39,003 nt of DNA from Pseudogracilibacillus sp. (GTDB lineage: Bacteria > Bacillota > Bacilli > Bacillales > Amphibacillaceae), in the NCBI GenBank assembly GCA_026169505.1, contig JAPFCO010000133.1, positions 1 through 39,003 of the forward strand, written 5' to 3'. Position 1 is the first letter of the stretch. Every line of letters begins with the position of its first letter. The position numbers and the translations under genes were made by a program. Positions 943 to 29,380 of this stretch are shown here, piece by piece. The notes beneath the pieces were generated by a model that searched no databases, was not told the origin of the DNA, and worked only from the letters and a program-made list of their open reading frames with translations.

Positions 943-1048
943 AATCAATTTCATCATTTCAAAAACAACTATGTCTCTATAGTATGTAGTTAAGACCGTT
1001 ACAACGAAACCACATACGTGGAGATAAATCTGTATGATGAAATTGATT
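943..1048. repeat. 15-bp perfect inverted repeat (943-957 / 1034-1048) bounding a 106-bp intergenic segment
   Basis: AATCAATTTCATCAT at 943-957 and its exact reverse complement ATGATGAAATTGATT at 1034-1048, between the substrate-binding protein and first permease genes. Confidence 0.8.
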
Positions 1049-1076
1049 AGATCGGGTAAAGAAAGGAAAGGAAGTA

Positions 1077-3120: not shown

Positions 3121-3145
3121 ATACTATGATGAAGGAGTGATTATC

Positions 3146-3964
3146 ATGAACGAATTAGAAGCCAATAATTTAACTCTAGGTTATGGCGATGTTATTGTTA
3201 TCGACAACTTAGATGTACATATACCAAAAGGCGGAATTACTGTTTTCGTTGGCGCAAATGGTTGTGGTAAATCAACGTTATTACGCTCATTAGCACGACT
3301 CTTAAAACCAAAATCAGGAAATGTATTATTGGATGGAAAGCTTTTGGAGAAGTTATCAACAAAAGATATAGCAAAACAACTAGCCATTTTACCCCAAGCG
3401 CCACTTGCACCAGAAGGTTTAACTGTATTAGAACTTGTTAAACAAGGCAGGTATCCGCATCAAAACTGGTTACAGCAATGGTCGAAACAGGATGAATCTA
3501 TCGTTAATAAAGCGTTGCAATCGACTGGTATGAAAGAATTTGCTGATCGATCGGTTGAATCTTTGTCAGGAGGCCAAAAACAAAGAGCATGGATTGCAAT
3601 GACATTAGCACAGAAGACAGAGGTAATATTATTGGATGAACCAACAACCTATTTAGATTTGGCACATCAGATTGATGTGTTGGATTTGTTGTTTGATCTC
3701 AATAAACGAGAAGGACGCACTGTCATAATGGTGTTACATGATTTAAATTTAGCGTGTCGCTATGCAGATCATATTATATCTGTATGTAATAAACAAATTT
3801 ATGCACAAGGTAAACCAGAAAATGTGATCACCTCAAAAATGATGAAAGCCGTATTTAATTTGGATTGTGACATTACAGAAGATCCAATATTTGGTACACC
3901 TTTATGTATTCCGCACGGGAAGGGAAGATTTGTTACAGAAAAGCTAAAGAATAAAATAGTTTAA
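3146..3964 (+). CDS. ABC transporter ATP-binding protein (FecE/FhuC-like)
   Basis: Walker [10 protein letters not shown], signature LSGGQKQR, Walker [17 protein letters not shown] at 3146 preceded by AGGAG is preferred over the longer ORF start at 3044, which overlaps the permease gene. Confidence 0.93.
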
Positions 3965-3971
3965 CATGATC

Positions 3972-4016
3972 AAAGATAGATAGAAGGGTTTTGAAACTTT
4001 CTATCTATCTTTTTAT
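3972..4016 (+). terminator. Rho-independent terminator of the importer operon
   Basis: Perfect 14-bp stem AAAGATAGATAGAA (3972-3985) / TTCTATCTATCTTT (3999-4012) followed by T-rich sequence. Confidence 0.85.
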
Positions 4017-4076
4017 ATAAACATCTTCATTATAAATGATAGTTGGGTAGTTTTTCTCATTTATATAAAACATCAT

Positions 4077-4097
4077 TGACAATGAGAATCATTTTCA
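4077..4097 (+). promoter_or_regulatory. Fur box overlapping a candidate promoter -35
   Basis: TGACAATGAGAATCATTTTCA against the 21-bp consensus TGATAATGATAATCATTATCA (18/21). TTGACA at 4076-4081 could be the -35 element. Confidence 0.85.
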
Positions 4098-4120
4098 GTA
4101 GAGTGAACTTGTGGCATAAT

Positions 4121-4135
4121 TGAGAACAATTATCA
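4121..4135 (+). promoter_or_regulatory. Second, weaker Fur-box-like site
   Basis: TGAGAACAATTATCA against 7-1-7 TGATAATNATTATCA (two mismatches). Confidence 0.55.
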
Positions 4136-4160
4136 ATTACAGTTTTTAGGAGCATAAAAA

Positions 4161-4274
4161 ATGGATCATGTTTATGTTGGAGAAAAAGGATCAAACATAG
4201 TGAATAGAATAACTGATGCGTATTCTGATGATCGAACGTCTTATTTGTGTATAGATTCAGTTTTAAGGTACTGA
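4161..4274 (+). CDS. Small ORF (37 aa) at the head of the Fur-regulated operon, unknown function
   Basis: ATG preceded by TAGGAG with 8-nt spacing; MDHVYVGEKGSNIVNRITDAYSDDRTSYLCIDSVLRY*; stops 5 nt before the MFS ORF. Absent from the supplied ORF track because of its length. Confidence 0.5.
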   Translation: MDHVYVGEKGSNIVNRITDAYSDDRTSYLCIDSVLRY

Positions 4275-4279
4275 TATAA

Positions 4280-5713
4280 ATGAATATACTGCGTCTGTTC
4301 CATATGAGAAACGTGAGAAGACATAATGTGTTATTTGCTATTCTAATTGGTGCCTTCTCATTAGTTTTAACAAATAGCGCTTTTAATATTTTATTACCAA
4401 ACATCATTGAAATGTATAATATCTCAACTACATATGGTGGCTGGATAATAATCATTTATTTGTTAGCAATGACAGTTACTATGCCACTGACTGGATCAAT
4501 AGTAGATTTATTAGGAAAAAAGACGACTTATCTGATAGGCATTGGGTTATACGGTCTGTTTTCAATAGTAGGTGGAGTATTATCTCATTCAGTGCATGTG
4601 GTTATGTTTGTTCGGTTTATGCATGGAGTTTCCGCTGGATTAATGATTCCATTATCATTAGTGTTACTTTTTGATATTTACAAGAAAGAGGTTAGAGGGA
4701 AAGTAACGGGTGTTTGGGGGATGTTATTAACTATTGCACCAGCTATTGGACCAACATTTGGTGGCCTCATTATTCAGTATGGAAGTTTGGCACATTTATT
4801 TTGGTTTAATGTTCCTTTTGCTTTTATTTCTTTATTTCTTTGTTTCAAAAAAATTAAGGGAGTTCGGCCTGCAAGAAAAAAACAAATTCGTGTTCAACAT
4901 ATTATACAAATGATGATTGGTATTGGTAGTCTTTGTATTGGGATTCAGTTAGTATCAAATTCCGATATTCCATTATGGTTCACATGTGTAGTTATATTAA
5001 TCGGTTTATATGTTTTAATTTTGTTTATTAAAAAAGATAGCGCGCAAAAAGAACCGCTCATTCGATTTATGTTGTTGAAGAATCGAGTTTACGCACTTTC
5101 AGTTATCATAACAGCAATACAGGCTGCTGCTATATTTGGGGTTATATTTATTTTCCCATTACTATTTCAAGAAATATATGGTTTATCACCAACAATTACA
5201 GGTGCTTTATTTATACCGACAGCTATATTTACAAGTATGTTTGTTTGGATTGGTGGTAATTTTCTAGATACAGGCAAATCAATTCACTTTATATTGTTAG
5301 GTGTAGGGTTAATGATAGGTTCGATTTTAATGTTTGTGTGGGTGCCACAAGAGGTATCGTTAGTATTCATCATCGTGATGATGTCTATAAGAGGTGTCGG
5401 AATCGGTTTATCAAACATGACGGTGATTACGATAGGTCTCAATTCACTTTCCAATGATTATCTTCATGAAGGATCGGCTTTATCTAACACAATAAAACGT
5501 TTGGTATCTTCTATTACTATGATGGCACTAACTGGTTATTACGAGATTCGTTGGCAAATGCTTCAGCGAATGGGGGAGTCGGTTTTAGATTCAAAATGGA
5601 AGGCTTTAAGAGAAGAATGTTTGATATTAAGTGGACTGATGTTGTTAGCTCTACTCTTGGTAGGTCTTTTAATAAAGGAGAGAAATAATGAGGACGTTAA
5701 GAATAGAAAATAA
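4280..5713 (+). CDS. MFS transporter, probable siderophore exporter (SbnD-like)
   Basis: 477 aa, about 14 TM drug-transporter-like MFS with TGSIVDLLGKKTTYLIGIGLYG; first large gene of the siderophore operon. Confidence 0.85.
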   Translation: MNILRLFHMRNVRRHNVLFAILIGAFSLVLTNSAFNILLPNIIEMYNISTTYGGWIIIIYLLAMTVTMPLTGSIVDLLGKKTTYLIGIGLYGLFSIVGGVLSHSVHVVMFVRFMHGVSAGLMIPLSLVLLFDIYKKEVRGKVTGVWGMLLTIAPAIGPTFGGLIIQYGSLAHLFWFNVPFAFISLFLCFKKIKGVRPARKKQIRVQHIIQMMIGIGSLCIGIQLVSNSDIPLWFTCVVILIGLYVLILFIKKDSAQKEPLIRFMLLKNRVYALSVIITAIQAAAIFGVIFIFPLLFQEIYGLSPTITGALFIPTAIFTSMFVWIGGNFLDTGKSIHFILLGVGLMIGSILMFVWVPQEVSLVFIIVMMSIRGVGIGLSNMTVITIGLNSLSNDYLHEGSALSNTIKRLVSSITMMALTGYYEIRWQMLQRMGESVLDSKWKALREECLILSGLMLLALLLVGLLIKERNNEDVKNRK

Positions 5714-7382
5714 AAGTAGAGTAAATCATAAAGAGCAAGCAAATATACATACATGTAAAACATTATTAAATTGCTATATTAGAGAGATTTGCGGGACTGA
5801 CCTTCATTTATTTTCAGTGAATCAACAGACAAAATCATATTCAATTAACTTTCCAATAAGTAAGATAACTATTTCTGGGGTTTTATCCCATTACTCAGAA
5901 ATAGGGGCACATGAATTTGAAAGTTTTTATGTGAATAAAGTTATTGGTCTAAATTATAAGTGTGTAGTTCAACTAATTGTGAAGGAACTGCAACATCACA
6001 ATACTTCAAAGACGGCGAAGTATGGTAAAGATTTTATCCGGAAAGTAGATAATAGTTATTATAAATTATCCTATATTTTAAAAGAATCTGTTCCACCAGA
6101 TACGTGGGATTACTTAGCATCTGAACAATCGGTGTTATACGGTCATCCATTTCACCCATTTCCTAAAAATACTTATGGTTTTACAGTGGAAGAGTTTAAG
6201 AAATATTGCCCTGAATTATGTGTCTCTTTTAAATTATGTTATTTTGCTGTAAGGAAAGAAGTTTTTCAAGAAGAATGGATAGAAAGTGAAAATGTAGTAC
6301 AGTTTCCAAGTTCTGTTCAATTACGTGCAAAAGACGTACTCAAAAATAAGATCAATCAATATGACATATTACCAATGCATCCTTGGCAATATCAATATGT
6401 AAAATCGCTGCAGCCAGTAAAGCAATTTATAGTGAAAGAAATGTTAGTTCCGCTGGGGGATTGTGGACCAGAAGCGTACCCAACATCTTCGGTAAGGACA
6501 GTATTTATTCCAGAGATGAATTGCAATCTGAAATTGTCTTTAAACATACAAATAACCAATTTAATTCGAAATAATAATTATGAACAAATACGTAGAACGT
6601 TAGATGCAACAAACTGTTTATTGCAAAATGATTGCTTTAACGAAGAATTAAATACTAGCATCTCTTATGAGGTAGGAGCAAGTACTTGTGAATTTGGAGA
6701 TGAAGATATAACAAAGCTGTTCACAGTATTATTCCGACCTATCGAATTTGACAGAAGTTGCACATATGTATTATCTAACTTGATTGAATCACCAGTAGGA
6801 GAGGAGAAGTCGCGTTTAAGTACCTATATTGCTAACGATGTGATAGACAATTGGTTTCAACGATATTTAGAAATCTCGCTTGTTCCTCTTGTGCGGATGG
6901 CAGAAGAGAAAGGTATACATTTTGAAGCTCATTTACAGAATTCCTTATTAACTATTAAACACGGGATGCCATATGAATTTATATTGAGGGATTTAGAAGG
7001 AGTGAGCGTAGATATAGAAAAAGTTGAAGAAGGAATTGATATAACCGGTCCCCTTTATTATGAAAGAGAAGAGACATGGGAACGAACATCATACTATTTT
7101 ATAGTGAATCATTTAGGTTCCCTTATTCAGAAGTTAGCAAAAGATTTTGAAAGGAACGAAAGGTATTTTTGGAAAATGGTACATCAAGCACTGGCAAAAG
7201 AATATGACCAAAGCCGAAATGAATTTGCCTTTCATTTATTAACAACCAAGACGTTTAATGCGAAACAAAATTTAATTAGCTGTCTAGTTGGAGAGGGCGA
7301 AACACCATCATTTGTTCCAGTAGTTAATGTTATTCAAAAGATAGGGAGTGAACTATATGCATACGATGATTCAATCATGTAA
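5688..7382 (+). CDS. IucA/IucC-family NIS siderophore synthetase (SbnE-like position)
   Basis: 564 aa; GHPFHPFPKNTYGF, ILPMHPWQYQY, PTSSVRTVFIP, KLSLNIQITNLIR, FEAHLQNSLL; RBS AAAGGAG upstream. Confidence 0.93.
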   Translation: MRTLRIENKSRVNHKEQANIHTCKTLLNCYIREICGTDLHLFSVNQQTKSYSINFPISKITISGVLSHYSEIGAHEFESFYVNKVIGLNYKCVVQLIVKELQHHNTSKTAKYGKDFIRKVDNSYYKLSYILKESVPPDTWDYLASEQSVLYGHPFHPFPKNTYGFTVEEFKKYCPELCVSFKLCYFAVRKEVFQEEWIESENVVQFPSSVQLRAKDVLKNKINQYDILPMHPWQYQYVKSLQPVKQFIVKEMLVPLGDCGPEAYPTSSVRTVFIPEMNCNLKLSLNIQITNLIRNNNYEQIRRTLDATNCLLQNDCFNEELNTSISYEVGASTCEFGDEDITKLFTVLFRPIEFDRSCTYVLSNLIESPVGEEKSRLSTYIANDVIDNWFQRYLEISLVPLVRMAEEKGIHFEAHLQNSLLTIKHGMPYEFILRDLEGVSVDIEKVEEGIDITGPLYYEREETWERTSYYFIVNHLGSLIQKLAKDFERNERYFWKMVHQALAKEYDQSRNEFAFHLLTTKTFNAKQNLISCLVGEGETPSFVPVVNVIQKIGSELYAYDDSIM

Positions 7383-9165
7383 TGAAAGTTCCGTCATATT
7401 TGAAGAAGTAAAAGAAAGAATAATGCGACAGACGTTAGAAGCGTTATTTTACGAAGAAATTATGGAATATGACCAAGAAGGTAATAACTGGTACTTTTAT
7501 GGGACAGGCATAAATGGAAATAATGTCAACTATTCATGTAAAGCAGCTGAGAAATGGTCTTTCAGTAAACCTCAAATCGAAAAAAATTCAATTCAAAGAG
7601 AAGGAGATTCCTGTACAGACATTTATTTATTTCTGGAAGAAGTAATTAAATATAATATAAAAGCTCCAAATACATCTCCATTCACGGAGGAACTGCTCGC
7701 AACCTTAGAGAAGGATAATCAGTCTAAACAATACCAAGTGGAAGAAATTCCGGAAAAGGATATACATTATGAAGCATTAGAAAGTCATATGATAGATGGT
7801 CATCCATACCATCCAAGTTATAAATCAAGAATTGGCTTTTCTATGGCGGATAATTTTGCTTATGGGCCAGAGTTTAATCAAGATATAAACGTGTATTGGA
7901 TTGCTGTTGCTGAGCAATTAGTCGATATAAATATCTCAAAAGATTATGAATCTGCCAAAATTATTGAAGAACATATGACAAAAAAGGATCTAGACCAATT
8001 CAATCATATTCTCAAGGAGAAGGGGTGCGAAGATAAAGAATATCATTTTATGCCTGTTCACCCCTGGCAATTGGAAAATAAGATTCAATCACTATTTATA
8101 GAGCAAATAATGAATAAAGATATCGTTATTTTAGGTGTATTAAATGACCCATATCGTGCACAACAATCTATTCGTACGCTATCACATCGAAAAAATGAAC
8201 AGGCATGCTATATAAAGTTTCCATTAAGTATCATTAATACTTCCACAAGTCGAATTCTAGCTCATCATACAACACAAAATGCACCATTAATAAGTGACTG
8301 GCTATATAAAATATTAAAAAACGATGCTACTTTAGGGGAAGGAAAAGTTCAGATATTAAGAGAAGTGATGGGTCTTTCTTTTCGCTACGATGACTTGCAA
8401 CCTGTTCAATATGATCTTGCATACGGAAGCCTTGGATTAATATTTAGAGAGAATGTATCAAAATATGTATCAAACGAAGAAGAAGCTTGGCCATTGAATG
8501 CTATTTCACATATTCAGAAAAATGGAACACCCTTTCTTCAAACTGCGATTGATCAATATGGAGTGGAGAATTGGAGTCATGCATTATTGGAAGTAGTAAT
8601 TCGCCCAATAATCCATCTATTGTATAGGCATGGCATAGCACTTGAATCACATGCTCAAAATATCATTTTAGTTGTAGAGGATAATTTCCCTAAACGGATA
8701 ATTCTCAAGGATTTACACGATGGTGTTAGGTATCACTCGGCTCAATTGTTAAATCCGGAATTGAAACCAAAATTATATCCGGAACCTGAAAGTCACCGTA
8801 AGTTTAATCGATATTCTTTTCTCGAAGCAGAAAGTGCGGAAGAAGTTAGGGACTATACTTATGATGCGTTCTTCTTCATTTGCCTGTCAGAAATCTGTTT
8901 CACATTAGAATCATTTGGGTTAAAAGAGCAAGACTTTTGGTATCAATGTGTAAAAGTAATAAATCAATATCAAGATGAAAATTCAGAAATAAAGGAGCGT
9001 TTCTCTTTGTTTGATCTCTTTTCAGAAGATGCTTTCTTAGAGGAAATGACAAAAAGACGCATTTTCGGAGATGGTCAATTATATTTTCGTAAATCTAAAA
9101 ACCCCTTACAGCAAGCAAGGAGTGAGTTCGTTGAGGGAAAATACATTAAAAGGAAAAATAGCTAG
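7357..9165 (+). CDS. IucA/IucC-family NIS siderophore synthetase (SbnF-like position)
   Basis: GHPYHPSYKSRIGF, FMPVHPWQLE, QQSIRTL, KFPLSIINTSTSRIL, LESHAQN. ATG at 7357 is preceded by AGGGAG; the ORF track starts at an upstream GTG (7348). Confidence 0.93.
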   Translation: MHTMIQSCNESSVIFEEVKERIMRQTLEALFYEEIMEYDQEGNNWYFYGTGINGNNVNYSCKAAEKWSFSKPQIEKNSIQREGDSCTDIYLFLEEVIKYNIKAPNTSPFTEELLATLEKDNQSKQYQVEEIPEKDIHYEALESHMIDGHPYHPSYKSRIGFSMADNFAYGPEFNQDINVYWIAVAEQLVDINISKDYESAKIIEEHMTKKDLDQFNHILKEKGCEDKEYHFMPVHPWQLENKIQSLFIEQIMNKDIVILGVLNDPYRAQQSIRTLSHRKNEQACYIKFPLSIINTSTSRILAHHTTQNAPLISDWLYKILKNDATLGEGKVQILREVMGLSFRYDDLQPVQYDLAYGSLGLIFRENVSKYVSNEEEAWPLNAISHIQKNGTPFLQTAIDQYGVENWSHALLEVVIRPIIHLLYRHGIALESHAQNIILVVEDNFPKRIILKDLHDGVRYHSAQLLNPELKPKLYPEPESHRKFNRYSFLEAESAEEVRDYTYDAFFFICLSEICFTLESFGLKEQDFWYQCVKVINQYQDENSEIKERFSLFDLFSEDAFLEEMTKRRIFGDGQLYFRKSKNPLQQARSEFVEGKYIKRKNS

Positions 9166-9931
9166 AAAAGAACCTGTATTTGGAATGTTTGTATCTATTC
9201 CTCACCCAATTGTTATTGAGATGATAGGCCATGCTGCATTCGATTTTGTCATTATAGATTACGAACATGCAACAACAAGTATGGAAACAATTGAAAACAT
9301 GATTCGATCAGCAGAATTATTAAATATCACTCCATTAGTTAGGATTTCTACTATTGAAAGAACGGAAATATTAAAAATATTGGATTGTGGTGCACAAGGG
9401 ATTGTAATTCCAAATGTAACATCTAAAGAACAGGTGGAAGAAGTCATTTATCATTCATATTATTATCCAATTGGAATGAGAAGTTTGAACAGTGGACGAC
9501 CAGGAATTTTCGGTAAGCACTCGTTAAAAGAATATATTTTAAAAGCAAACAAAGAATTAATGGTTATCCCGATGATAGAAAGTTTGACAGGTGTGAACGG
9601 AAGTGAATCTATTTTGTCCATACCGCAAGTCAGCTTTGTTTTAGAAGGAGCAGCTGATTTATCCCAATCACTTTCAGTGCCATGGGAAACGGAAAATGTA
9701 AAAGTGCAAGTTCATCTAGAAAAGCTATATACCATTGCAAGAAGTTGTAATGTACCATACGCCATGGTTTCCAGAAATAATCAAGCACATAAAAAGTGGG
9801 CACAAAAAGATGTGAATATTTTTGTGTTAGGAGATGAAAGAGGTACAGCATTTCGAGCATTTCAAGATAAATTGGAATATTACAAAAGTATAACTGGAGG
9901 ATTAAATATAAAATATGATGGAGCAGATTGA
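9131..9931 (+). CDS. HpcH/HpaI aldolase-family protein, SbnG-like citrate synthase
   Basis: GMFVSIPHPIVIEMIGHAAFDFVIIDYEHA, DCGAQGIVIPNV; position matches sbnG. TTG at 9131 has AAGGAG upstream and gives LRENTLKGKIARKEPVFG; the ORF-track start 9071 would overlap the previous gene by 95 nt. Confidence 0.88.
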   Translation: MRENTLKGKIARKEPVFGMFVSIPHPIVIEMIGHAAFDFVIIDYEHATTSMETIENMIRSAELLNITPLVRISTIERTEILKILDCGAQGIVIPNVTSKEQVEEVIYHSYYYPIGMRSLNSGRPGIFGKHSLKEYILKANKELMVIPMIESLTGVNGSESILSIPQVSFVLEGAADLSQSLSVPWETENVKVQVHLEKLYTIARSCNVPYAMVSRNNQAHKKWAQKDVNIFVLGDERGTAFRAFQDKLEYYKSITGGLNIKYDGAD

Positions 9932-11126
9932 AAGATTAATATCAGAACATATAAACAAAGACAATCCAGTTTGTGCATACATTTACGATATAGAAGGAAT
10001 GAAACACCATGTTAAAAAAATGGTCGAGTTAATGCCTAAGCAAACATTTTTATTTTATGCCATTAAAGCAAATCCGGATAAAGAGATAATTAAAGCTCTG
10101 TTACCGTTAGTAAAAGGGTTTGAAGTAGCATCAATTGGAGAGCTATTAAAAGTTAGGGAAGTATCGCAAACTGCACCTGTTTTATTTGGTGGTCCGGGAA
10201 AGAAAGATTATGAACTTAAAGCGGCACTTCAAGAAAATGTGTCATATATTCATATTGAAAGCCTTCTAGAGTTAAGGAGATTAATCATTTTAGCAAAAGA
10301 ATTAAATAAGTATATAAAGGTTTTATTACGAATCAATCTTAAAGCAGTTGAATTACCAATAACCAATATATCAATGGGGGGGCGACCAAGTCAGTTTGGA
10401 TTAGATGAAGACAAGGTAGAAGAGGCGATCACCCTGTTATTTGCAGCTGAAAATACGCATATACAATTTAGCGGATTTCACTTTCATTCTTTATCGAATA
10501 ATTTAGAAGCTGCTTCACATGTGGAGATGATACGTCATTATATACGTCGGGTAAAAGAATGGGAACAACTCTATGCCTTAGATGTTCAACTTATTAATGT
10601 AGGTGGGGGTTTTGGTGTATCTTATGAGGAACAATTCGAGTTTAATTGGCGAGAATTTATTACCTTGCTCACAAAGAGCACAGAGTTCCAAGCGTTAGAA
10701 GATGTTCCAATCTATTTTGAGCCTGGGAGGATTATAGTAGCAGAATTCGGTTATTATGTTACTGAAATAATCGATATAAAAAAGTCATATGATCAATTCT
10801 TTGGGATAGTTAGGGGTGGAACACACCATAATCGATTACCAGCATCTTGGGACCATAATCAGCCATTTACGATTATACCGCAAGAGAATTGGTCATATCC
10901 ATTTAAAAGACCATGCGTGCACCATTCAAAAGTAACGATAGTTGGTGAGTTGTGTACACCAAAAGATCAATTTTATAAAGATGCTTTCATTGAAAAATTA
11001 CGTGTGGGAGATATTATTATGTTTGAAAAATCGGGAGCATATTGTTGGACAATTTCGCATCATGATTTTTTAGGACATCCACATCCCGACTTTCACTATA
11101 TTATGGAAGGAAATAATTATGTATAA
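9915..11126 (+). CDS. PLP-dependent fold-III decarboxylase (SbnH-like)
   Basis: FLFYAIKANPD (PLP lysine region), HFHSLSNN, NVGGGFGVSYEE, EPGRIIVAEFGYYV, GELCTPKDQF, SGAYCWTISHHDFLGH. Confidence 0.9.
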   Translation: MMEQIERLISEHINKDNPVCAYIYDIEGMKHHVKKMVELMPKQTFLFYAIKANPDKEIIKALLPLVKGFEVASIGELLKVREVSQTAPVLFGGPGKKDYELKAALQENVSYIHIESLLELRRLIILAKELNKYIKVLLRINLKAVELPITNISMGGRPSQFGLDEDKVEEAITLLFAAENTHIQFSGFHFHSLSNNLEAASHVEMIRHYIRRVKEWEQLYALDVQLINVGGGFGVSYEEQFEFNWREFITLLTKSTEFQALEDVPIYFEPGRIIVAEFGYYVTEIIDIKKSYDQFFGIVRGGTHHNRLPASWDHNQPFTIIPQENWSYPFKRPCVHHSKVTIVGELCTPKDQFYKDAFIEKLRVGDIIMFEKSGAYCWTISHHDFLGHPHPDFHYIMEGNNYV

Positions 11127-12963
11127 GACAATTATAGAATCGATCGACTTGACGGCAGAAGAAATAATAATGAAAGATTTAATGGATGTATTTATTGCAG
11201 AGCAGTTTTTTTCAATAAATACAGCTACAACTAAAAGGCTTATCGATATGTCAAATGATGTTCAAAGTTTATATCCCCAAAATAAAGAAGCACTTATTTA
11301 TGTAGGCGAATGGTGTTTTATAGTTGAAAAGAGTTATAGACAAGGATATCAATGGATCAGTCGCTCAACGGTATATAGTCAGAATAGCAACAGAGATTGG
11401 GAAATAATTAATTCTCCAATTGCATTAGCTGAGGCTGTATTACAGTGGTCTTTATCTACAAAGGAATATAAACATACTAGTGTAGGAAAATTCATTAATA
11501 GTGTAAAAAAATCTGTATCTCAGTTAGCATACAGTATGAAAGGGATGAATTTTAACTCTCTTACACCTCAAAGCTCATATGATTGGTTCGTGAAAGGAGA
11601 AATGATAGCATCCTTAAGGGATCGTCCATTTCATCCCACAGCTAAAGCTAAGATTGGTTTCACTCCTGAAGAATACCATCATTTTATGGCCGAGTTTAAT
11701 CAACAGACTTATTTTAACTGGATAGCTATCCAGAATGATTATGTTATGAAAAGTTCAACAGCAACATATCAAAATTGTTTCAGTATGTTGACTCCGACTC
11801 AGAGTCAAACTATTGAGGATGAATTATGTTCAAAAGGGATCAAACAAGATCAATACACCATTATACCTGTACATCCTTGGCAACTTGATCATGTTATTTC
11901 ATTGAATTTTACACGGGAAATAAAAAATAAAACAGTCATTGTTTTAGATACTAAGACAGATGGTTTTTTAGCTACATCGTCTCTTCGTTCCTTTTTATCG
12001 AAAAAGGGATCGACAAAGATGTTAAAATTACCAATTAGTGTTACATCACTTGGAGCTATGCGATACTTACCTGTCGTCAAATTATTAAATGGAAATGCTG
12101 GTGAGAAAATGTTTCGACAAGCAATTAATTGTGACGATACACTAAAAGATAAAGTGTTTTTATGTGAGGAAAATAATTGGTGGGGATACATGCCTCCAGA
12201 TATGGGATTGTTTGATGATCATCCTCGACATTTAGCAGCTCAACTCCGATTATATCCTCAGGCCTTAATAAAGAAAGACATGAGAGTCATTCCAATGTCT
12301 TCATTAGGAGTTGTAGTGAATGAAAGTCATTTTATTGACGAGATATTTGGGCAGTCAATGGCAAAAAAAGATGTCATCCAATTTTATTCGGAATTAGTAA
12401 CAAACTTTTATGAGATTACGTTGAGATTATTTAAGGTTGGTATCGTACCGGAAATCCATGGTCAAAACTGTTGCTTAGTGTTAGATAAGAAAAAGATAAC
12501 GGGATTGTTATTTAGGGATCATGATTCGGTGCGTCTCTACCAGCCATATTTAGACAAACATGGAATTGAAGATCCTGGATATTATATCAGACCCGGTTAT
12601 TCAAATAGTCTTTATAATGAGACGGTTGAAAGCCTGATGTTTTATATTCAGTCATTGGGAACGCAAGTGAATTTAGCATCAATCATGGAAGCATTAGCAA
12701 AAGCTTATTCAATACCCGAAAAAACGTTTTGGTCTACCACTAAAAATGTGTTACAAGACACGTTAAAAATGATTGATCTTCCTAAACAAGATAAAAGTAA
12801 ATTACAAGATGAATTGTTTTACAGAAAGGAATGGCCATTGAAGTTAGTTGTGCGACCATTATTAGAAGCTGATGATGTACCAGGTGCGATGCCATCAGGC
12901 AAGGGAATAGGATATAACCCTTTTTATGAATTAGATGATAGAGGCACTTATGTTACTCATTAA
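11119..12963 (+). CDS. IucA/IucC-family NIS siderophore synthetase (SbnC-like)
   Basis: 614 aa; RPFHPTAKAKIGF, IIPVHPWQLDHV, ATSSLRSFLSKKGSTKMLKLPISVTSLGAMRYLP, PEIHGQNCCLVLD. Confidence 0.92.
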   Translation: MYKTIIESIDLTAEEIIMKDLMDVFIAEQFFSINTATTKRLIDMSNDVQSLYPQNKEALIYVGEWCFIVEKSYRQGYQWISRSTVYSQNSNRDWEIINSPIALAEAVLQWSLSTKEYKHTSVGKFINSVKKSVSQLAYSMKGMNFNSLTPQSSYDWFVKGEMIASLRDRPFHPTAKAKIGFTPEEYHHFMAEFNQQTYFNWIAIQNDYVMKSSTATYQNCFSMLTPTQSQTIEDELCSKGIKQDQYTIIPVHPWQLDHVISLNFTREIKNKTVIVLDTKTDGFLATSSLRSFLSKKGSTKMLKLPISVTSLGAMRYLPVVKLLNGNAGEKMFRQAINCDDTLKDKVFLCEENNWWGYMPPDMGLFDDHPRHLAAQLRLYPQALIKKDMRVIPMSSLGVVVNESHFIDEIFGQSMAKKDVIQFYSELVTNFYEITLRLFKVGIVPEIHGQNCCLVLDKKKITGLLFRDHDSVRLYQPYLDKHGIEDPGYYIRPGYSNSLYNETVESLMFYIQSLGTQVNLASIMEALAKAYSIPEKTFWSTTKNVLQDTLKMIDLPKQDKSKLQDELFYRKEWPLKLVVRPLLEADDVPGAMPSGKGIGYNPFYELDDRGTYVTH

Positions 12964-13543
12964 GAATAGAGTGAATTATTATTCTTACAAGGAAATACAA
13001 CAACTTCAAAAAATTAGCACTTCCACAATAGGGCATTTTACTGATTTTGGCTTTCTAACGCATTTAACTTGTAGTATCCCTATAACGAACGTTTTGGGTC
13101 CTGTATTGACAGTGAAATTGTCTAGTGGAGATGGAACTCATTTAAATAATGTATTACATCATGCGCAAAAAGGAGATATTTTAGTTATTGATACGTCAGG
13201 AAATAAAACACATGCTTGTTGGGGAGAGTTTCGATCAAGACGTGCTGAAGAAATTGGTTTAGCGGGAGTTATTATTAGCGGTGCTGTAACAGATTCTTCT
13301 TATTTGAAAAAAAGCAATGTACCAGTATTTTATGAGTCTGTTTCCCCAAGGACAACGAGCTCATTAAATTTAGAGGGTGAGATTAATACACCTGTTTGTG
13401 TAGGTGGCGTAGTTTTTGAATCTGGAGATTATGTTATTGCAGATGAAGATGGCATTTATAAGTTGAATCGATTGAATTATAAAGGGTTAATAGAACTAGC
13501 GCTTAAAAAAGAGCAATACGAAATAGAAAGAAGACAAAGCTAA
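12935..13543 (+). CDS. RraA-fold (HMG aldolase-like/RraA-like superfamily) protein
   Basis: GDGTHLNNVLHHAQKGDILVIDTSGNKTHACWGEFRSRRAEEIGLAGVIISGAVTDSSYL; RraA-like architecture. Overlaps the preceding synthetase gene; ATG 12950 is an alternative start. Confidence 0.8.
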   Translation: MIEALMLLIKNRVNYYSYKEIQQLQKISTSTIGHFTDFGFLTHLTCSIPITNVLGPVLTVKLSSGDGTHLNNVLHHAQKGDILVIDTSGNKTHACWGEFRSRRAEEIGLAGVIISGAVTDSSYLKKSNVPVFYESVSPRTTSSLNLEGEINTPVCVGGVVFESGDYVIADEDGIYKLNRLNYKGLIELALKKEQYEIERRQS

Positions 13544-13599
13544 AGACCCTGTATTTTAACATAGGTGAGAAGTATTTCCATGTCAAGTTTACTAAGGTG

Positions 13600-14361
13600 A
13601 TGAAAATGAATAATACAGTAATGACTGAATTAAAAAAATTCGATATACAGCTTGAATCGGAAACATTACAAGTAACAGATATATTTGATTTATTGGATGA
13701 TGAAAAGTGTGTGGCTTTTTTACAAAAGCAGATGGAAGAAATAAAAGCACCTACATTATCTGTTGCAGCCTCGTTGTTTTCTAAAAGGTATGCTTACTTA
13801 GTTGTGTCATCAACTTTATTTAGTATGGGAAAATATGATTGTGCACTTGTTTTACCTATTCAGGCATGTGGGCTAAACTCAGAACGTAAATTATGTATTA
13901 AGGCAGATATGTGTCACTGGTATCGGGTGGAAAGTATGCCAAGAGAACAATGGTGTGCGCATGTTATTCGATCGCTTTTTTCCAACCACTTGACCCCGCT
14001 ATTCTGTGCGCTACAAAGAAATGCGCGTGTACCGTCTAAAATATTATGGGAAAATGTCGCTGTCCGCATTAACTCTATTTATCGAAAAACATTAGCAAAG
14101 GAAACAAATCTAGTGAAGCGGCAACAATTGTACAATGATTTTTATTTCTTGAAAGAGGCAGAAGGAACATTATTTGGTACCGAAAAGAATCCTATAAAAG
14201 ACTATTTGAAAATAGGAGAGGCGCTCAAGTCGGACCCTTACCGAAAAACATGTTGCTTGTACTTTAGACTAGAGGAGGATTTAGAAGGGATCGGTTATTG
14301 CGCTAATTGTTTAATCAAAAAAAGAAAGTCTAGTAAATCATCGAATAAAAACTGCATCTAG
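13600..14361 (+). CDS. FhuF-like (2Fe-2S) ferric-siderophore reductase-type protein
   Basis: C-terminal KTCCLYFRLEEDLEGIGYCANCLIKK resembles the FhuF CC-x(n)-CxxC cluster motif; AAGGTG upstream; last gene before a strong terminator. Confidence 0.75.
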   Translation: MKMNNTVMTELKKFDIQLESETLQVTDIFDLLDDEKCVAFLQKQMEEIKAPTLSVAASLFSKRYAYLVVSSTLFSMGKYDCALVLPIQACGLNSERKLCIKADMCHWYRVESMPREQWCAHVIRSLFSNHLTPLFCALQRNARVPSKILWENVAVRINSIYRKTLAKETNLVKRQQLYNDFYFLKEAEGTLFGTEKNPIKDYLKIGEALKSDPYRKTCCLYFRLEEDLEGIGYCANCLIKKRKSSKSSNKNCI

Positions 14362-14426: not shown

Positions 14427-14756
14427 TCGAAAGCGTATTACTTAAGTCTCTATCTGAAATACTCATCGTTTACTTACTGACCTTATGCACTAGGGACCTT
14501 TTATTCAATTTGGATAAAATTGCTGAGAGTTCGTTGACAGGTTAATGTCGGAGTACTATTCTTAGTATGATGAATAAAAACTGTCATAAAATGGTGGATA
14601 TGTTTTTTAATTGAATGAATGACATGTTGCCAATTATTTTTATACTTGAAAATTACATACTATTAACCGAATAAATTTAGATGATATTTATATTTTACAT
14701 TAAAATAGACTTACAAAAAGTGAAATTGACACGTTAATATTAGGAGGGGGAAACAG

Positions 14757-15179
14757 ATAACGTCGATTTACCAGTTAAAGGATCAAAAACGAACAGTATT
14801 AAAGGGGATGGCTAATTCAAAGAATGGCATTTCAGACTTAGAAGATAAGATTTCAAAACTAAAAGAAGCTTCTAATCAATTAACAAAGAATATTTCTGAA
14901 TTAGAAACGATAAAAAGCTCTATTGATTCTTTAACCATAGAGTCTGGAAGATGGAACGGTGAAGAGAAAAAATCATTTAAAGAAGCGTATGATGAATATA
15001 AAGAGAAAGTCAAAATATATGTCACTGCAACAGAGGATGCAAAAGAAGCGATTGACGAGGATATAAAAAGGTATGAAGATAACTTAGATACTAAAATCAT
15101 AGGACTAAATAACTTGGAAAGTGCACTGGGTCGATTGGATGTTCAAATTACTCAAGCAGAAAAGGAGTCAGTTCGATGA
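14757..15179 (+). CDS. DUF5082/YwqH-like LXG-associated protein; start codon apparently ATA (first ATG is 14808)
   Basis: Small coiled-coil protein with W-N-G motif (SGRWNGEEKKSFKEAY). In-frame coding-like sequence TSIYQLKDQKRTVLKG extends upstream of ATG 14808 to ATA 14757, 9 nt after AGGAGG. Confidence 0.65.
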   Translation: MTSIYQLKDQKRTVLKGMANSKNGISDLEDKISKLKEASNQLTKNISELETIKSSIDSLTIESGRWNGEEKKSFKEAYDEYKEKVKIYVTATEDAKEAIDEDIKRYEDNLDTKIIGLNNLESALGRLDVQITQAEKESVR

Positions 15180-15478
15180 TAGATAAAATGGGTATAAATA
15201 CGGGTGAATTTCAATTATATATTTCAACTTTAAAATCCTCAGTTTCTGGTATAGAAAGTAGTATGGAAACAAATCGTACGTTTAATCAAACGAATATAGC
15301 TCCATTCACAAAAGACTTGGAACACATCATTAAAGCGATTGAATTAATAAATAAATACCAAACATTACTGCATTCGGACATTGATACGTTGGATCAAACT
15401 GGCAAGAAAATAAAAGAGACTGATGAAAGATTAGCAACAGGACCAAGAATTAATACGACAGGTCCACATCCACTGTGA
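15176..15478 (+). CDS. DUF5344/YwqI-like (TIGR04197-type) T7SS-associated protein
   Basis: 100 aa MIDKMGINTGEFQLYISTLKSSVSGIESSM...LHSDIDTLDQTGKKIKETDERL; AAAGGAG RBS; precedes an LXG gene. Confidence 0.75.
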   Translation: MIDKMGINTGEFQLYISTLKSSVSGIESSMETNRTFNQTNIAPFTKDLEHIIKAIELINKYQTLLHSDIDTLDQTGKKIKETDERLATGPRINTTGPHPL

Positions 15479-15494
15479 ACTAGGAGAGATATAA

Positions 15495-16936
15495 ATGGGG
15501 AAAAAGTACATATATCTGAAGTTATTGAATTCTCTAATGATATGGAAACTGCTACAGTAGATCTAGAGTCAGGATTGAAAAAAGTTGAAAAGAGTATTGA
15601 TCGATTAAATGTAATGAGTTCATTTTCAGGCAAAACTGCTAAAGAAGCAAAAGATTATTTTAACACTCTTCATCAAACAGTTTTAAAGTCATTTGAACAT
15701 TTATTTACTGAACTTGATGAATCTTTAAAAGGACACTTGAATTCATTCCAATCTAGAGTTGACTCTAGTAATTTTGCAATAATTGAGAGTGATTATTTAA
15801 ATGAATTAGAAGAACATGTGAATGAAGATTATGAGCATTTAACAGAACAACAAGAATCGATTAGGGAGACAATCGCAAATGTCTCTGAAATTAGTAGTGC
15901 CAATCATCCATCGACATGGGCAGTCACTAGTGGACACAAATCGGTGGTGGAAATTATATCTAATATAGAAACAAAATTAGAATCCTTTACTAGTCTAAAT
16001 GAACAGGAAGTTTCAGAGGTAGGTGAATTGATACACCATATTGAAACGACGATTCAGGAGGCAGGTGCCGTGCCTGGAGATGGTCGATTTGTTGAATATA
16101 CAAAGAATTCTATATCTGTTAGCTTGCTAGCGTTGAAGGGGCAAAATCATGAAAGACATATAGCAGTGGTGAATGAAGCTGAAAAGGCCAAAGACGCAGC
16201 CATTAAAGATATGGATAACTCATCCCAAGAAATATTAATAAAAGCATTAAAAGATTTGGAGAAAGGTGAAATTGATGAAGCTGGATACTATAACTATTTG
16301 ACTGAACTAAATAAGTTAACAAATGAAGAGGACTTAGAAGAGGAAGTATCCGAGAGTTTTTTCCAATATGTTACAGATAACTTTGGTGGAGTTACGGATG
16401 ATATTGAAAGTAACGCCATTGCTGCATATCTTAAGCAAAGTATTCAAGATACTCGGAACAATAAATTAAGTCGGGCTGAATTAGTTAAAGCGATGAGTGC
16501 ACACAAGGCATCTTCTACATATAATTACTTGAAGAATAGTGGGGATAGACTATTAAACGTAGGAAGGGCAGTGAGTACGACATTATTTGGAGTAACTATA
16601 GTAGCGGGAACTTATTGGGATTATAATCTGACTGATAAAACTTTAGGAGAAGCATTTGCGAAAAATGCTACTGGAGGGGGAGCTGGTTTAGTTGGAGGTG
16701 TAAGTGGTTATGCAGGGATGTATGTTGTAGCGGCATATCTAGGTTCTACAACTCCAGTAGGTTGGGCAATAGGAGGTAGTATAGTTGTAGGTACAGGTTT
16801 TACAACGGGATTTAACTGGATTTACGATAATGACTTTGGAGATATACAAGATAAACTGGATTGGGCAGGACAACAAATAGACAAGGTTGGAGAGACAATA
16901 TATAGTGGTTTTGATTTAATAAATCCATTTAGTTAG
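15495..16936 (+). pseudogene. LXG-domain T7SS toxin with hydrophobic glycine-rich C-terminus (TspA-like); 5' end frameshifted relative to its RBS/ATG
   Basis: LXG-like N-terminus (ISEVIEFSNDMETATVDLESGLKKVEKSIDRLNVMSSFSGKTAKEAKDYFNTLHQTVLKSFEHLF). C-terminus NATGGGAGLVGGVSGYAGMYVVAAYLGSTTPVGWAIGGSIVVGTGFTTGF. The ATG at 15495 with good RBS is one frame off the body ORF (tracked start 15542). Confidence 0.75.
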
Positions 16937-16992: not shown

Positions 16993-17646
16993 ATGAAATG
17001 TAAAGTGCGAGGAGTATATATGAATCCTTGGTATAGAGTTCTAACTATTGAGGGGAAAAGATATATTTTTGATATGGGTGGCTGGTCTTTCTGGAAAGTG
17101 TTATTCCCATTTGCTTACTGGATTTTCCCAAATACTGTTTATAAAATAAATGATGACGAATTGATAGAAAATATAATCGTACCCGAGGTGAAATCGAAAT
17201 CAACAGGGAGAAATGTTTTATTAGCAAGTGTTATTGGAATTGTTTTAGCTAATTTATTACAGCCATTAGTTAATTATTTTGATATTGAAGGTACTCCGTT
17301 TGTCAATACTATTATAGTTGTGCTTGTGTTTGCCATTATATTAGCCGTGTTTTTTTATATTAATATTAGTAGTAAGAAAAATCTAATGCAAATGATTGAT
17401 CTAAATCAATATGTAAGGCAACGATTGTGGATTCGTCCACAGTCTGCTAAACATTTTAGTTTTATCTTGTTTTCATATTTGTTTTTATTAGCGTTTATTA
17501 TTTTTATTGGGGCAGCACTTATTCATGTAGCAATAAATACAGTGATATTTTTATTTTGGATGATAATATTATCATTTTTATTATTTATTAATCTTGCGGC
17601 TGTTGGGGTTGGAGATACTACTGTGAAGTTTAAAATGGATAAATAG
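16993..17646 (+). CDS. DUF443 / tandem five-TM protein, copy 1 (TsaI-like putative immunity)
   Basis: MKCKVRGVYMNPWYRVLTIEGKRYIFDMGGWSFWKVLFPFAYWIFPNTVYKI followed by hydrophobic helices. Confidence 0.8.
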   Translation: MKCKVRGVYMNPWYRVLTIEGKRYIFDMGGWSFWKVLFPFAYWIFPNTVYKINDDELIENIIVPEVKSKSTGRNVLLASVIGIVLANLLQPLVNYFDIEGTPFVNTIIVVLVFAIILAVFFYINISSKKNLMQMIDLNQYVRQRLWIRPQSAKHFSFILFSYLFLLAFIIFIGAALIHVAINTVIFLFWMIILSFLLFINLAAVGVGDTTVKFKMDK

Positions 17647-18379: not shown

Positions 18380-18840
18380 ATGGAATGTAAACTACAAGGT
18401 GTGTATAAAAATGTTAGGTATAGAATTATGATTATGGATGAAGAAAGTTATATTCTTGACATGGGACGACCCTTTTGGAAAATGTTTTTCCCTTTCTTTA
18501 CTGGATTCTACCGAACGTAGCTTACAGAGTGAATGATCCTACAATTATGGAAAAAACAAAAATACCAGAAATAAAGCAAGATAAAACAGCATGGGAAGGT
18601 GTAATAACCGGGGCTATCGGTGTGTTTTTAGCCAATCTATTACAGTCTTTAGTAAATTACTTTAACGTTGAAAGCAACCAACTTGTTAACCCTATAATCA
18701 TATTGATTGTTTTTTCACTTGTATTATCAGTATTTTTCTATATAAGCATAAAGAATATTTTCAAAGTAAGGACGAAGACTCACGATGTGTCAATTAGTAC
18801 AGTTTCCGCTAAAAAATCGAATATGTTTGCTGAAATTTAA
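18380..18840 (+). pseudogene. DUF443 copy 3, frameshifted
   Basis: N-terminus MECKLQGVYKNVRYRIMIMDEESYILDMGRPFWKMFFPFF in one frame, continuing as YWILPNVAYRVNDPTIMEKTKIPEIK in another (tracked ORF 18475-18840); loss of one T in CCTTTCTTT(T)ACTGG. Confidence 0.8.
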
Positions 18841-18920
18841 CCGAAAAATACTTAATTGCTGATCGGATATTCCAAAGAGAAGCTTAAATAATTGAGGATC
18901 TGGGAGTGTGAAATTTTCTG

Positions 18921-19499
18921 ATGAATTGTAAAGTGCAAGGAGTGTATATGAATCCTTGGTATAGAGTTCTAACTATTGAGGCGAAAAGATATATATTGGA
19001 TATGGGCGGCTGGTCTTTCTGGAAAACGTTATTCCCATTTGCTTACTGGTTTTCCCAAATACTGTTTATAAAATCGGTGATGACGAATTGATAGAAAAGA
19101 TAATCGTACCCGAAGTAAAATCGAAATCAACGGGTGGAATTGTTTTATTAGCAAGTGTTATTGGAATTGTTTTAGCTAATTTATTACGGCCATTAGTTAA
19201 TTATTTTGATATTGAGGGAACGCCGTTTGTCAATACTATTATAGTTGTGCTTGTGTTTGCGATTATATTAGCTGTGTTTATTTATATTAATGTTAGTAGT
19301 AAGAAAGATCTGTTACAAATGATTGAACTAAAACAATATACAAAGCAACGATTGTGGATTCGTCCACAGTCAGCTAAACATTTTAGTTTTATCTTATTTT
19401 CATATTTGTTTTTATTAGCGTTTATTATTTTTATTATTTATTAATCTTGCGGCTGTTGGGGTTGGAGATACTACTGTGAAGTTCAAAATGGGTAAATAG
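18921..19499 (+). pseudogene. DUF443 copy 4, frameshifted and internally deleted near-duplicate of copy 1
   Basis: One-base loss at TACTGG(a)TTTTCCCAAAT plus a 74-bp deletion relative to copy 1 between ATTTTTATT repeats; tracked ORF 19088-19444 is only a fragment. Confidence 0.85.
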
Positions 19500-19555: not shown

Positions 19556-20218
19556 ATGAACTGTAAAGTCCAAGCAGTATATAAAAACCTACGATATAGA
19601 GTTCTAAGTGTTGGCGAGGAACGATATATTCTCGATATGGGTGGTTGGTCTTTTTGGAAGCTTTTATTTCCTTTTGCTTATTGGATTTTTCCAAATACTG
19701 TTTATAAAATAGATGATCATGAATTAGTAGAGCAAATTACCTCTCCTGAAGTAAAATCAGATTCATCCGGTGTGGATATTTTATTAGTAAGTGGTATTGG
19801 GATAACTTTAACGAATCTATTGTATCCTTTAGTAAAGTATTTTGACATTGATAGTGCACCGTTTATAAATTCCATTATTGTAGCAATAATTTTTATAATT
19901 ATATTAGCCATGTTTTTTTATATCAATATCAGAAATCAAAAAAGCTTGTTGAAAAAGGTTGATCTTCATCAATGTGTAAAGAGGCAAGCATGGATTCGAC
20001 CATATTCAATTAAGGACTTTTTTATTACACTGTTCTATTATTTGTTATCTCTCGGACTAACTTTTATAAGTTGGGATATGTTTATTCAATTTGCGAATGG
20101 ATTCATACTTTTTGTAGGAATTTTTTTCTTTATAATATTGATATTAATTAGTTTTATGACATTTAAGGTCGGAGAAACCAAAGTCAACTATTTAAAAAAG
20201 AAGAAGGCAACAGGCTAA
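19556..20218 (+). CDS. DUF443 / tandem five-TM protein, copy 5 (near-duplicate of copy 2)
   Basis: MNCKVQAVYKNLRYRVLSVGEERYILDMGGWSFWKLLFPFAYWIFPNTVYKIDDHELVEQITSPEVKSDSSG. Confidence 0.8.
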   Translation: MNCKVQAVYKNLRYRVLSVGEERYILDMGGWSFWKLLFPFAYWIFPNTVYKIDDHELVEQITSPEVKSDSSGVDILLVSGIGITLTNLLYPLVKYFDIDSAPFINSIIVAIIFIIILAMFFYINIRNQKSLLKKVDLHQCVKRQAWIRPYSIKDFFITLFYYLLSLGLTFISWDMFIQFANGFILFVGIFFFIILILISFMTFKVGETKVNYLKKKKATG

Positions 20219-20272: not shown

Positions 20273-20584
20273 ATGTTACCAATTGGATCAATTGTCTATT
20301 TAAAAGAAGGAACGAGTAAATTAATGATTGTAAACAGAGGTCCAATGTTTCCATCAGAAGAAACTGATGGCCAAAATATCATGTTTGATTATACAGCGTG
20401 CATTTATCCTCAAGGGTTAGATCCTAATCAGGTGTTCTATTTTAATGAAGAAAATATAGATAAAGTACTTTTCGAGGGATTTCAGGATGAAGACGAAGAA
20501 CGTTTTCAAGAGGTGTATGATAACTGGATGGAAGAAAATAAAACAATGATTGAACAAGGAATTGTGGCAGGGGCGTTGAAATAA
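20273..20584 (+). CDS. DUF4176-family T7SS-associated small protein
   Basis: MLPIGSIVYLKEGTSKLMIVNRGPMF...DYTACIYPQGLDPNQVFYFNEENIDKVLFEGFQDEDEERF. Confidence 0.8.
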   Translation: MLPIGSIVYLKEGTSKLMIVNRGPMFPSEETDGQNIMFDYTACIYPQGLDPNQVFYFNEENIDKVLFEGFQDEDEERFQEVYDNWMEENKTMIEQGIVAGALK

Positions 20585-26982: not shown

Positions 26983-27142
26983 CTACCTAGCATATGATTT
27001 TGGCACTAGGAGAGAAAAACAAATAAGGTGAGGATAAGTAATAATAAAAACTTAAGCATACAGACTAGTAACCAATAGTTAGCACTGTAGACACTACTTC
27101 AATTGATTTATGAGTTTTCATAATAAAGTAGAGGAGATTTCT

Positions 27143-27546
27143 ATGTACCTACGTGAAATTGAAAGTTTGGAATATTCTATATATGAATTACAAAAATCAT
27201 TGTATATGAAGCAAGAAGAAATTGAGCGATTGGAAATGGCGCAAAGTAATTTGATAGAGTTACAAGAAGAGTTTTTCTACAATCAGTCTTTATGCAAATC
27301 CCCTACACTATGTAAAAACACATGGCATGGTAAATTAGCAAAAGATTTTCAGACATTTCAAGAAGATGGAATCTTAGATACTTATCAAAAACTAACAAAG
27401 GAAAAATGAACGAGATTCTTAATCGATTAGCTGAAGAAATTGAAGCAATAGCGCAATCAATTGTAAGTATAGAGGGAACAATAGCAACGAAAGAATTGAG
27501 ACTACAATATGTAAGGGAAATAAGTAGTAAGGAGATATTAAAATAG
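27143..27546 (+). pseudogene. DUF5082/YwqH-like LXG-associated gene split by a frameshift at an A-run
   Basis: ATG 27143 with GAGGAG RBS; first frame ends TYQKLTKEK* at 27409, second frame (27406-27546) continues MNEILNRLAEEIEAIAQSIVSIEGTIATKELRLQYVREISSKEILK as the expected C-terminal coiled coil. Confidence 0.65.
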
Positions 27547-27865: not shown

Positions 27866-29380
27866 ATGAAAACGTTAGATGTACATACTTGGAAGCAAAA
27901 TATAGAACAAACTCAAAAGGATATACAAGTATGTAAGAACCAATTCGAAACGATTCAACATGCTATAGAAAAAGTCATTGCACTTGAAGGAGTTTTTACA
28001 GGAAAAACTGCGAACGCTATTCGTCTGTTTTATTCAACATGTCATCAACCACTTCTTAAACTGGCAGATGAAACATTTCATCGTTATGTAAAAACACTCC
28101 AACAAATGGAGGAAGAAATCTATTCTTTCGAATCGGCAACAGATGGATATGTGCAACAACAATTTTTAGAAGGTGATGTAACGAATGAATTAAATAAATT
28201 AATAAAAGTAGCGGATAATTTAACAGAGAAAGTCAATTTTAAACTATCCGATGTTTCCGATATTGTACATCTGCCCCTATTAAATAGTGATGAATTAACT
28301 GAAAAAATAGAAGAAGCAAAAGAAATGTCAAAACAGACAGTAAAACAACTTGAAGTATTGGATCGTTCACAAGCAGATGCTCTTGTCACTGTAAATGAAG
28401 ATATAAAAACAATGAAACAATCTGTAGAAGATATTGGCAATATACTGCATAATGGAGATATGTCGGTACGAGATATCAATCTTTCCACATTATCCGGCAG
28501 TGAGGCATATGCACAATTAATGTGGAAAGTTAATCCTCTTCCTAATGCGTATTATAAATTTATCAATATTCTTTCTGGAATATCGCCAATTGTACTAATG
28601 TTTAACCCTAAAAAGATGTTACCTACGATAATACATAATCAAGAATCGAAGGATACAGATATCAATGAATTAAAGAAAACAGAACAGTATCAACAATTAG
28701 AAACCCAAAATCAGTTGACTGCTGAGGAAGAAGCAGTCCTATCAAATTGGTTGCTAAATCCTGACAAACCCAAAAACGTTTCTATAGAAGACTTTGAGGC
28801 TTTAACAGTTGATGCGAAAGAACCCCTAATATTTGAACAAGAAAGACAAATGAAAGGCGGTAATTCCGACCTTGCCGGGACACCAGATGGTCTAGCTGGC
28901 CCAACTACTGCACTCTTCACGTTAGCTTATTATGTGTCAATCGACGATGCTGTGGTGTTACTTGATCCGAACTCTTCACCAGATGAAAAGGCAGTGGCAG
29001 GATTATTTTTACTTCCTACACCTGGGAAATTTGCCAAACCATTCTTGAAACATGCGGATGATATGGGTGGGGCAGGAAATGCGGGAAGAAAGGTAAAAAA
29101 AGTAAACGCAGATGAAATTACGTACAGTGATAAATTTAACAATTCAAAATATAAGAACCAGGTAAAAACACGAGGATGGACAAATGAGAGTATTGCTGAT
29201 GTGATAAATAACCCTCATAAGACAGGAAGTTCGGTAAATAAGTATACAGGCAATTCTGTTACCGTCTACTATAAAGATAATGTACATTATGTTGCAATTG
29301 ATAATGGCACGGGAAAAGTGATACAGGTTTCAGACTTAAATAGAAAACATTGGAATTTTGATCCTAACTTTTCAAAATAG
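27866..29380 (+). CDS. LXG-domain T7SS toxin with C-terminal colicin-E5-like tRNase domain
   Basis: LXG N-terminus MKTLDVHTWKQNIEQTQKDI...GKTANAIRLFYSTCHQPLL; C-terminal SKYKNQVKTRGWTNESIADVINNPHKTGSSVNKYTGNSVTVYYKDNVHYVAIDNGTGKVIQVSDLN matches the colicin E5 ribonuclease pattern (RGWT...NP.....VYY..YVV.D..TG.V.QVSD). Confidence 0.85.
   Translation: MKTLDVHTWKQNIEQTQKDIQVCKNQFETIQHAIEKVIALEGVFTGKTANAIRLFYSTCHQPLLKLADETFHRYVKTLQQMEEEIYSFESATDGYVQQQFLEGDVTNELNKLIKVADNLTEKVNFKLSDVSDIVHLPLLNSDELTEKIEEAKEMSKQTVKQLEVLDRSQADALVTVNEDIKTMKQSVEDIGNILHNGDMSVRDINLSTLSGSEAYAQLMWKVNPLPNAYYKFINILSGISPIVLMFNPKKMLPTIIHNQESKDTDINELKKTEQYQQLETQNQLTAEEEAVLSNWLLNPDKPKNVSIEDFEALTVDAKEPLIFEQERQMKGGNSDLAGTPDGLAGPTTALFTLAYYVSIDDAVVLLDPNSSPDEKAVAGLFLLPTPGKFAKPFLKHADDMGGAGNAGRKVKKVNADEITYSDKFNNSKYKNQVKTRGWTNESIADVINNPHKTGSSVNKYTGNSVTVYYKDNVHYVAIDNGTGKVIQVSDLNRKHWNFDPNFSK

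What the first reader, a model, noticed from the sequence alone, without database searches (positions are those of the whole stretch)
15482..15560. TspA-like LXG toxin switched out of frame at a GGGGAAAAA tract immediately after its start codon
TAGGAGAGATATAA-ATG is a normal start at 15495, but that frame is not the toxin frame. Adding one G (or removing one base) in GGGGAAAAA gives MGEKVHISEVIEFSNDMETATV..., a normal LXG N-terminus. The body ORF is otherwise intact for over 460 codons. A homopolymer at codons 2-4 of an intact toxin gene is the layout expected of slipped-strand phase variation, although simple inactivation or sequencing error is possible.
Basis: partly seen in the sequence, partly recalled or inferred. 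Interest (0 to 1): 0.6.

Follow-up and report, generated by a model that had tools for sequence, protein, structure and literature searches.

The report
Silenced bacterial rival-killing toxin operon
A bacterium carries a gene for a toxin aimed at rival bacteria whose start signal is out of step with the rest of the gene; neighbouring genes show similar damage, so this looks like an ordinary, recently broken toxin operon rather than a genetic on/off switch.

Summary
The only well-placed start, AGGAG-N8-ATG (15495), opens a 21-codon frame ending at 15560, whereas the LXG toxin frame is open and intact from 15479 to 16936. All 28 relatives whose start was read start in frame here. The gene is a TspA/TelD-type T7SSb effector: YwqH-like and DUF5344 partners, LXG toxin with a glycine-rich hydrophobic C-terminus, five DUF443 (TsaI-type) immunity paralogues, DUF4176. 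The secretion machinery is intact elsewhere in the genome.

Phase variation is not supported. GGGGAAAAA is expected 0.58 times in this window by chance, no relative has it, the change cannot be placed within the tract, and even an A6 tract reverts at only about 5.5e-7 in a published assay. The operon has a second, independent start lesion: its first partner gene has ATA where relatives have ATG, GTG or TTG. Two of five immunity genes are multi-lesion pseudogenes, and the partner of the contig's other LXG gene is frameshifted. About 88 kb of this genome's coding sequence shows no frameshift outside this contig's toxin and remnant regions, so sequencing error is less likely. Best reading: recent, probably irreversible silencing of the toxin while intact immunity genes are kept.

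The parts
14742..14759 (+). SD AGGAGG (14742-14747) followed after 9 bases by ATA (14757-14759) where relatives of the partner gene have ATG, GTG or TTG: second start lesion of the operon
   Evidence: best relative aligns from residue 1 with ATG at this place; 25 of 26 relatives have a standard start with SD by automatic scan
14757..15179 (+). YwqH-like (PF16888) partner of the LXG toxin; body intact, first in-frame ATG (14808) internal
   Evidence: PF16888 E 7e-20 from 14757
15176..15478 (+). DUF5344 (PF17279) partner, normal ATG start
   Evidence: E 3.5e-5, slightly below the curated cut-off; 41-55% identity to the same gene in relatives
15482..15560 (+). SD and out-of-frame ATG (15495) with 21-codon frame ending in TAG
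15497..15505 (+). GGGGAAAAA run, absent from relatives and expected by chance
15479..16936 (+). Open frame of the TspA-like LXG toxin (LXG domain about 15509-16060; hydrophobic Gly-rich C-terminus about 16550-16820)
16993..17646 (+). DUF443 immunity paralogue 1, intact
   Evidence: PF04276; TIGR01218
17704..18357 (+). DUF443 immunity paralogue 2, intact
18380..18840 (+). DUF443 paralogue 3, broken: split over two frames and shortened
18921..19499 (+). DUF443 paralogue 4, broken: split over three frames with an internal deletion
19556..20218 (+). DUF443 immunity paralogue 5, intact
20273..20584 (+). DUF4176 gene, as at the end of the telD operon
   Evidence: PF13780 E 1e-28

Best explanation
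This is a TspA/TelD-type T7SSb LXG toxin operon that has recently lost normal translation initiation of its toxin gene and of its first partner gene. Ribosomes recruited by the SD at 15482 start at ATG 15495 and stop after 21 codons, so little or no LXG protein is made. The partner gene upstream has ATA in place of its start codon. Shown: both start-region defects, the intact bodies, the decayed immunity copies and the intact secretion machinery. Inferred: that the cell makes no effective toxin while intact DUF443 genes still protect it, and that the state is a fixed loss rather than a switch.
For: Frame offset. In-frame starts in 28 relatives. Independent ATA start lesion in the first partner gene. 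Two multi-lesion DUF443 pseudogenes next to three intact ones. Frameshifted partner of the second LXG gene on the contig. No frameshift in about 88 kb of compared coding sequence outside this contig's toxin and remnant regions. Machinery intact.
Against: The toxin body is intact and as conserved as in functional relatives (3 of 36 strongly conserved positions changed, mid-range), so loss must be recent or some protein is still made. No close strain or reads were available. Both lesions sit at translation starts, which random decay does not predict.
Confidence: 0.68

Rival explanations
1. Assembly or base-calling error: the real genome has an in-frame start and the toxin is normal.
For: The genome is a 509-contig draft with 8.5% estimated contamination; the body shows no decay; a single indel explains the toxin's state.
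Against: No frameshift in about 88 kb of other compared coding sequence; an independent substitution-type start lesion in the same operon; multi-lesion neighbours. The runs involved are short.
Confidence: 0.16
2. Low-level expression by non-standard means: AUA initiation (in-frame ATA at 15491 and 14757), early ribosomal slippage within the first codons, or weak internal initiation, so that the operon is throttled and not dead.
For: Bodies of toxin and partner are intact; both lesions lie at translation starts; an in-frame ATA follows an SD in both genes.
Against: The ATA at 15491 is only 4 bases from its SD and competes with a well-placed ATG; no slippery heptamer in phase and no unusual structure (z = +1.19); no relative uses such starts.
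Confidence: 0.1
3. Slipped-strand phase variation: the GGGGAAAAA run gains or loses bases reversibly and switches the toxin on and off.
For: A purine run lies at codons 2-4; longer homopolymers near gene starts can switch genes (swrA, inlA; PMC2831843).
Against: Runs are only 4 and 5 long; the string is expected by chance; no tract in relatives; A6 to A7 occurs at only about 5.5e-7 and deletion in A2GA4 below 3e-10; the partner start lesion would remain.
Confidence: 0.05

Closest known systems
TspA-TsaI of Staphylococcus aureus (PMC7456083, PMC9484751)
   Same: LXG toxin with a hydrophobic C-terminus followed by a tandem array of DUF443 immunity genes; broken fragments in the array are also known there
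   Different: Here small partner genes precede the toxin, and the toxin and first partner have damaged starts
TelD operon of Streptococcus intermedius GC1825 (PMC9600955)
   Same: Two small helical partners, LXG toxin, DUF443-type immunity, DUF4176 at the end
   Different: Partners here are YwqH-like (DUF5082 type) and DUF5344, not Lap1/DUF3130 and Lap2/DUF3958; several DUF443 copies; start lesions
5' poly(A) frameshift alleles such as inlA of Listeria and swrA of Bacillus subtilis (PMC2831843)
   Same: Frame lost close to the start of an otherwise intact gene
   Different: Those have longer A runs with alleles of both lengths observed; here runs are 4 and 5, with no evidence of variation

Membership tests
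LXG (PF04740) T7SSb effector | N-terminal LXG domain over the Pfam cut-off | tested here: met
   92.7 bits from ATG 15542, 103 bits in the open frame, cut-off 26.5
LXG (PF04740) T7SSb effector | Small helical partner genes upstream | tested here: met
   YwqH-like and DUF5344 genes
LXG (PF04740) T7SSb effector | T7SSb machinery in the genome | tested here: met
   WXG100, EssA, YukD, YukC and EssC found; 1157-aa ORF at the EsaA position without a Pfam match
TspA/TsaI type | Tandem DUF443 immunity genes directly downstream | tested here: met
   Five copies, three intact
TspA/TsaI type | Membrane-depolarising C-terminal domain | not testable with these tools
   Only hydropathy, five C-terminal GxxxG motifs and partial matches to staphylococcal plasmid LXG sequences
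Slipped-strand phase-variable gene | Repeat tract long enough for hypermutation and conserved or variable among relatives | tested here: not met
   G4 and A5 only, chance expectation 0.58, absent from relatives
Slipped-strand phase-variable gene | Tract length differs between cells or strains | not testable with these tools
   No reads and no close strain; best relative about 53% identical
Programmed -1 ribosomal frameshift | In-phase slippery heptamer plus stimulator, conserved in relatives | tested here: not met
   No X_XXY_YYZ heptamer in phase by inspection; fold z = +1.19; relatives are in frame

The most novel reading that the evidence does not exclude
The operon is throttled rather than dead: initiation of both the toxin and its partner has been weakened to AUA initiation or early ribosomal slippage while the coding bodies stay under selection, giving very low toxin output alongside a kept immunity array.
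Probability: 0.09. Interest if true: 0.55.

Novelty: new member of a known kind. Interest (0 to 1): 0.2.

Why it matters
It is a clear case of a polymorphic-toxin operon in which the offensive part is damaged while immunity genes persist, a step expected in the turnover of interbacterial toxin islands. It also shows that a short purine run next to a start codon is not by itself evidence for phase variation: checking the rest of the operon for independent lesions separates decay from switching.

Tried and rejected
Phase variation: tract chance test, start regions of relatives and published reversion rates. Programmed frameshift: no heptamer in phase, no unusual structure. Downstream initiation at ATG 15542: no SD. 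Read-through of the DUF5344 stop, which shares the toxin frame: a chance 1-in-3 relation, not pursued. Close strains: best relative about 53% identical; the first scan of named genomes found nothing, a profile scan found 13 loci, mostly in related genera. No phage match; only partial plasmid matches. The whole genome was not available as a file, so stretches were sampled as a frameshift control; that control tests internal frames well but start codons poorly, because the starts of the reference proteins were guessed. No structure was predicted, as the question is about expression and not fold. Literature searches for LXG with phase variation, or with pseudogene and frameshift, gave nothing relevant.

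Full report
OBSERVATION. The sequence around 15480 reads SD AGGAG (15482-15486), eight bases, ATG (15495), and that frame ends at TAG 15558-15560 after 21 codons. A different frame is open without interruption from 15479 to 16936 and encodes an LXG protein (PF04740, 93-103 bits against a cut-off of 26.5). Its first in-frame ATG is 15542, with no SD in front, and starting there would drop about the first 16 residues of the LXG domain. The string GGGGAAAAA occurs once in the window; shuffles give 0.58 on average and 45 of 100 contain it at least once.

RELATIVES. Searches of about 160 genomes of the same family and of named genomes gave relatives up to 53% identical, in Lentibacillus, Oceanobacillus, Virgibacillus, Gracilibacillus and Pseudogracilibacillus. 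In 28 relatives whose start could be read by motif (27 from other genomes, one paralogue of the same genome), an SD is followed by ATG (sometimes GTG or TTG) and the x-x-K-V/I-acidic motif in frame. None has the G4A5 run. The change therefore happened on the window's own lineage, somewhere in the first four codons or so; its exact position cannot be assigned. The acidic residue of the KVD motif is also changed, to His, in the window. Intact copies exist in relatives.

SURROUNDINGS. The order is YwqH-like partner (PF16888), DUF5344 partner, LXG toxin, five DUF443 genes, DUF4176. This resembles the telD operon of S. intermedius (small partners, LXG, a DUF443-type immunity gene, DUF4176; PMC9600955) and the tspA-tsaI locus of S. 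aureus (PMC7456083; PMC9484751). The toxin C-terminus is moderately hydrophobic with five GxxxG motifs and matches three staphylococcal plasmid sequences, two of them annotated as LXG toxins, so a membrane-depolarising activity like that of TspA is a reasonable inference, not a result. The secretion machine is present elsewhere in the genome: an EsxA-type WXG100 protein, a 1157-aa ORF at the EsaA position, EssA, YukD, YukC and EssC.

A SECOND START LESION. The YwqH-like partner aligns with relatives from their first residue, and at that residue the window has ATA (14757), nine bases after a strong SD (AGGAGG, 14742-14747). The best relative has ATGACGTCA at the same place. Of 26 relatives tested, 25 have ATG, GTG or TTG with an SD there by an automatic scan; the 26th has an in-frame ATG without an SD that the scan recognised. 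The first ATG in the window's frame (14808) is internal, lies directly against its nearest purine run, and cuts off the N-terminus of the domain. This substitution is independent of the toxin's frame problem and would not be undone by slippage at the toxin tract.

OTHER DAMAGE ON THIS CONTIG. DUF443 paralogues 3 and 4 are split over two or three frames and shortened. The YwqH-like partner of the contig's second LXG gene (LXG with a colicin-E5 domain, 27866-29380) runs out of frame at about 27405 and its C-terminal part continues in another frame (judged by eye against paralogues, since the 47-residue remainder gave no Pfam match). By contrast, 60 gene regions (51 kb) covered at least 80% in one frame at 40% identity or more, and 109 regions (88 kb) at relaxed limits, drawn from 436 kb of this genome, showed no frameshift except these DUF443 copies and one remnant at 37.0 kb of the window. 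Random sequencing error at the density seen in the toxin clusters therefore looks unlikely, though it cannot be excluded for any single site.

AGE. In a leave-one-out test over the LXG domain, the window departs from 3 of 36 strongly conserved positions, in the middle of the range 0-9 of the relatives. The body has not visibly decayed, so silencing is recent, or the sequence is in error, or some protein is still made.

MECHANISM. Most likely, ribosomes bound at 15482 start at ATG 15495 and terminate after 21 codons, so the LXG protein is not made in useful amounts, and its first partner is under-translated too. Intact DUF443 genes remain, giving protection without attack. Shown: frames, start codons, intact and broken genes. 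Inferred: absence of toxin, protection by DUF443, irreversibility. Published rates for a comparable 5' tract are about 5.5e-7 for A6 to A7 and below about 3e-10 for deletions in a broken A2GA4 run (PMC2831843). Runs of 4 and 5 would be expected at the low end of that range, too rare for a population-level switch (inference).

VERDICT. It is an ordinary, probably recent silencing of a known type of toxin operon. What keeps modest interest is that the lesions of toxin and partner both lie at translation starts while the bodies remain intact, which leaves a small chance of throttled expression.

Noticed in passing
window 14742-14808: YwqH-like partner gene of the toxin has ATA at the expected start codon after a strong SD; relatives have ATG, GTG or TTG.
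   Followed up: yes
window 27110-27546: YwqH-like partner of the second LXG gene is frameshifted at about 27405, at a short A run, and its C-terminal part continues in another frame.
   Followed up: partly
window 18380-19499: Two of five tandem DUF443 immunity paralogues are multi-lesion pseudogenes; copy 4 is a close paralogue of copy 1 with an internal deletion.
   Followed up: yes
window 31995-32690: Orphan cassette: a copy (about 81-84% identical) of the pre-toxin region of the colicin-E5 LXG gene joined to a different C-terminus and followed by possible immunity genes.
   Followed up: partly
window 36829-37130: Remnants of the colicin-E5 LXG C-terminus and of its immunity gene tail, next to a broken short-chain-dehydrogenase-like fragment.
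   Followed up: no
L030 (G065, second LXG copy): A relative's second LXG copy has several frame breaks in its N-terminal part but a long intact body; orphan and broken LXG fragments are common at these loci.
   Followed up: partly
window 43-14361: A siderophore-type locus (three IucA/IucC-type synthetases, PLP decarboxylase, aldolase, MFS exporter, FecCD permease, binding protein, FhuF) lies directly upstream of the toxin operon, and the genes tested have near full-length domain matches.
   Followed up: no
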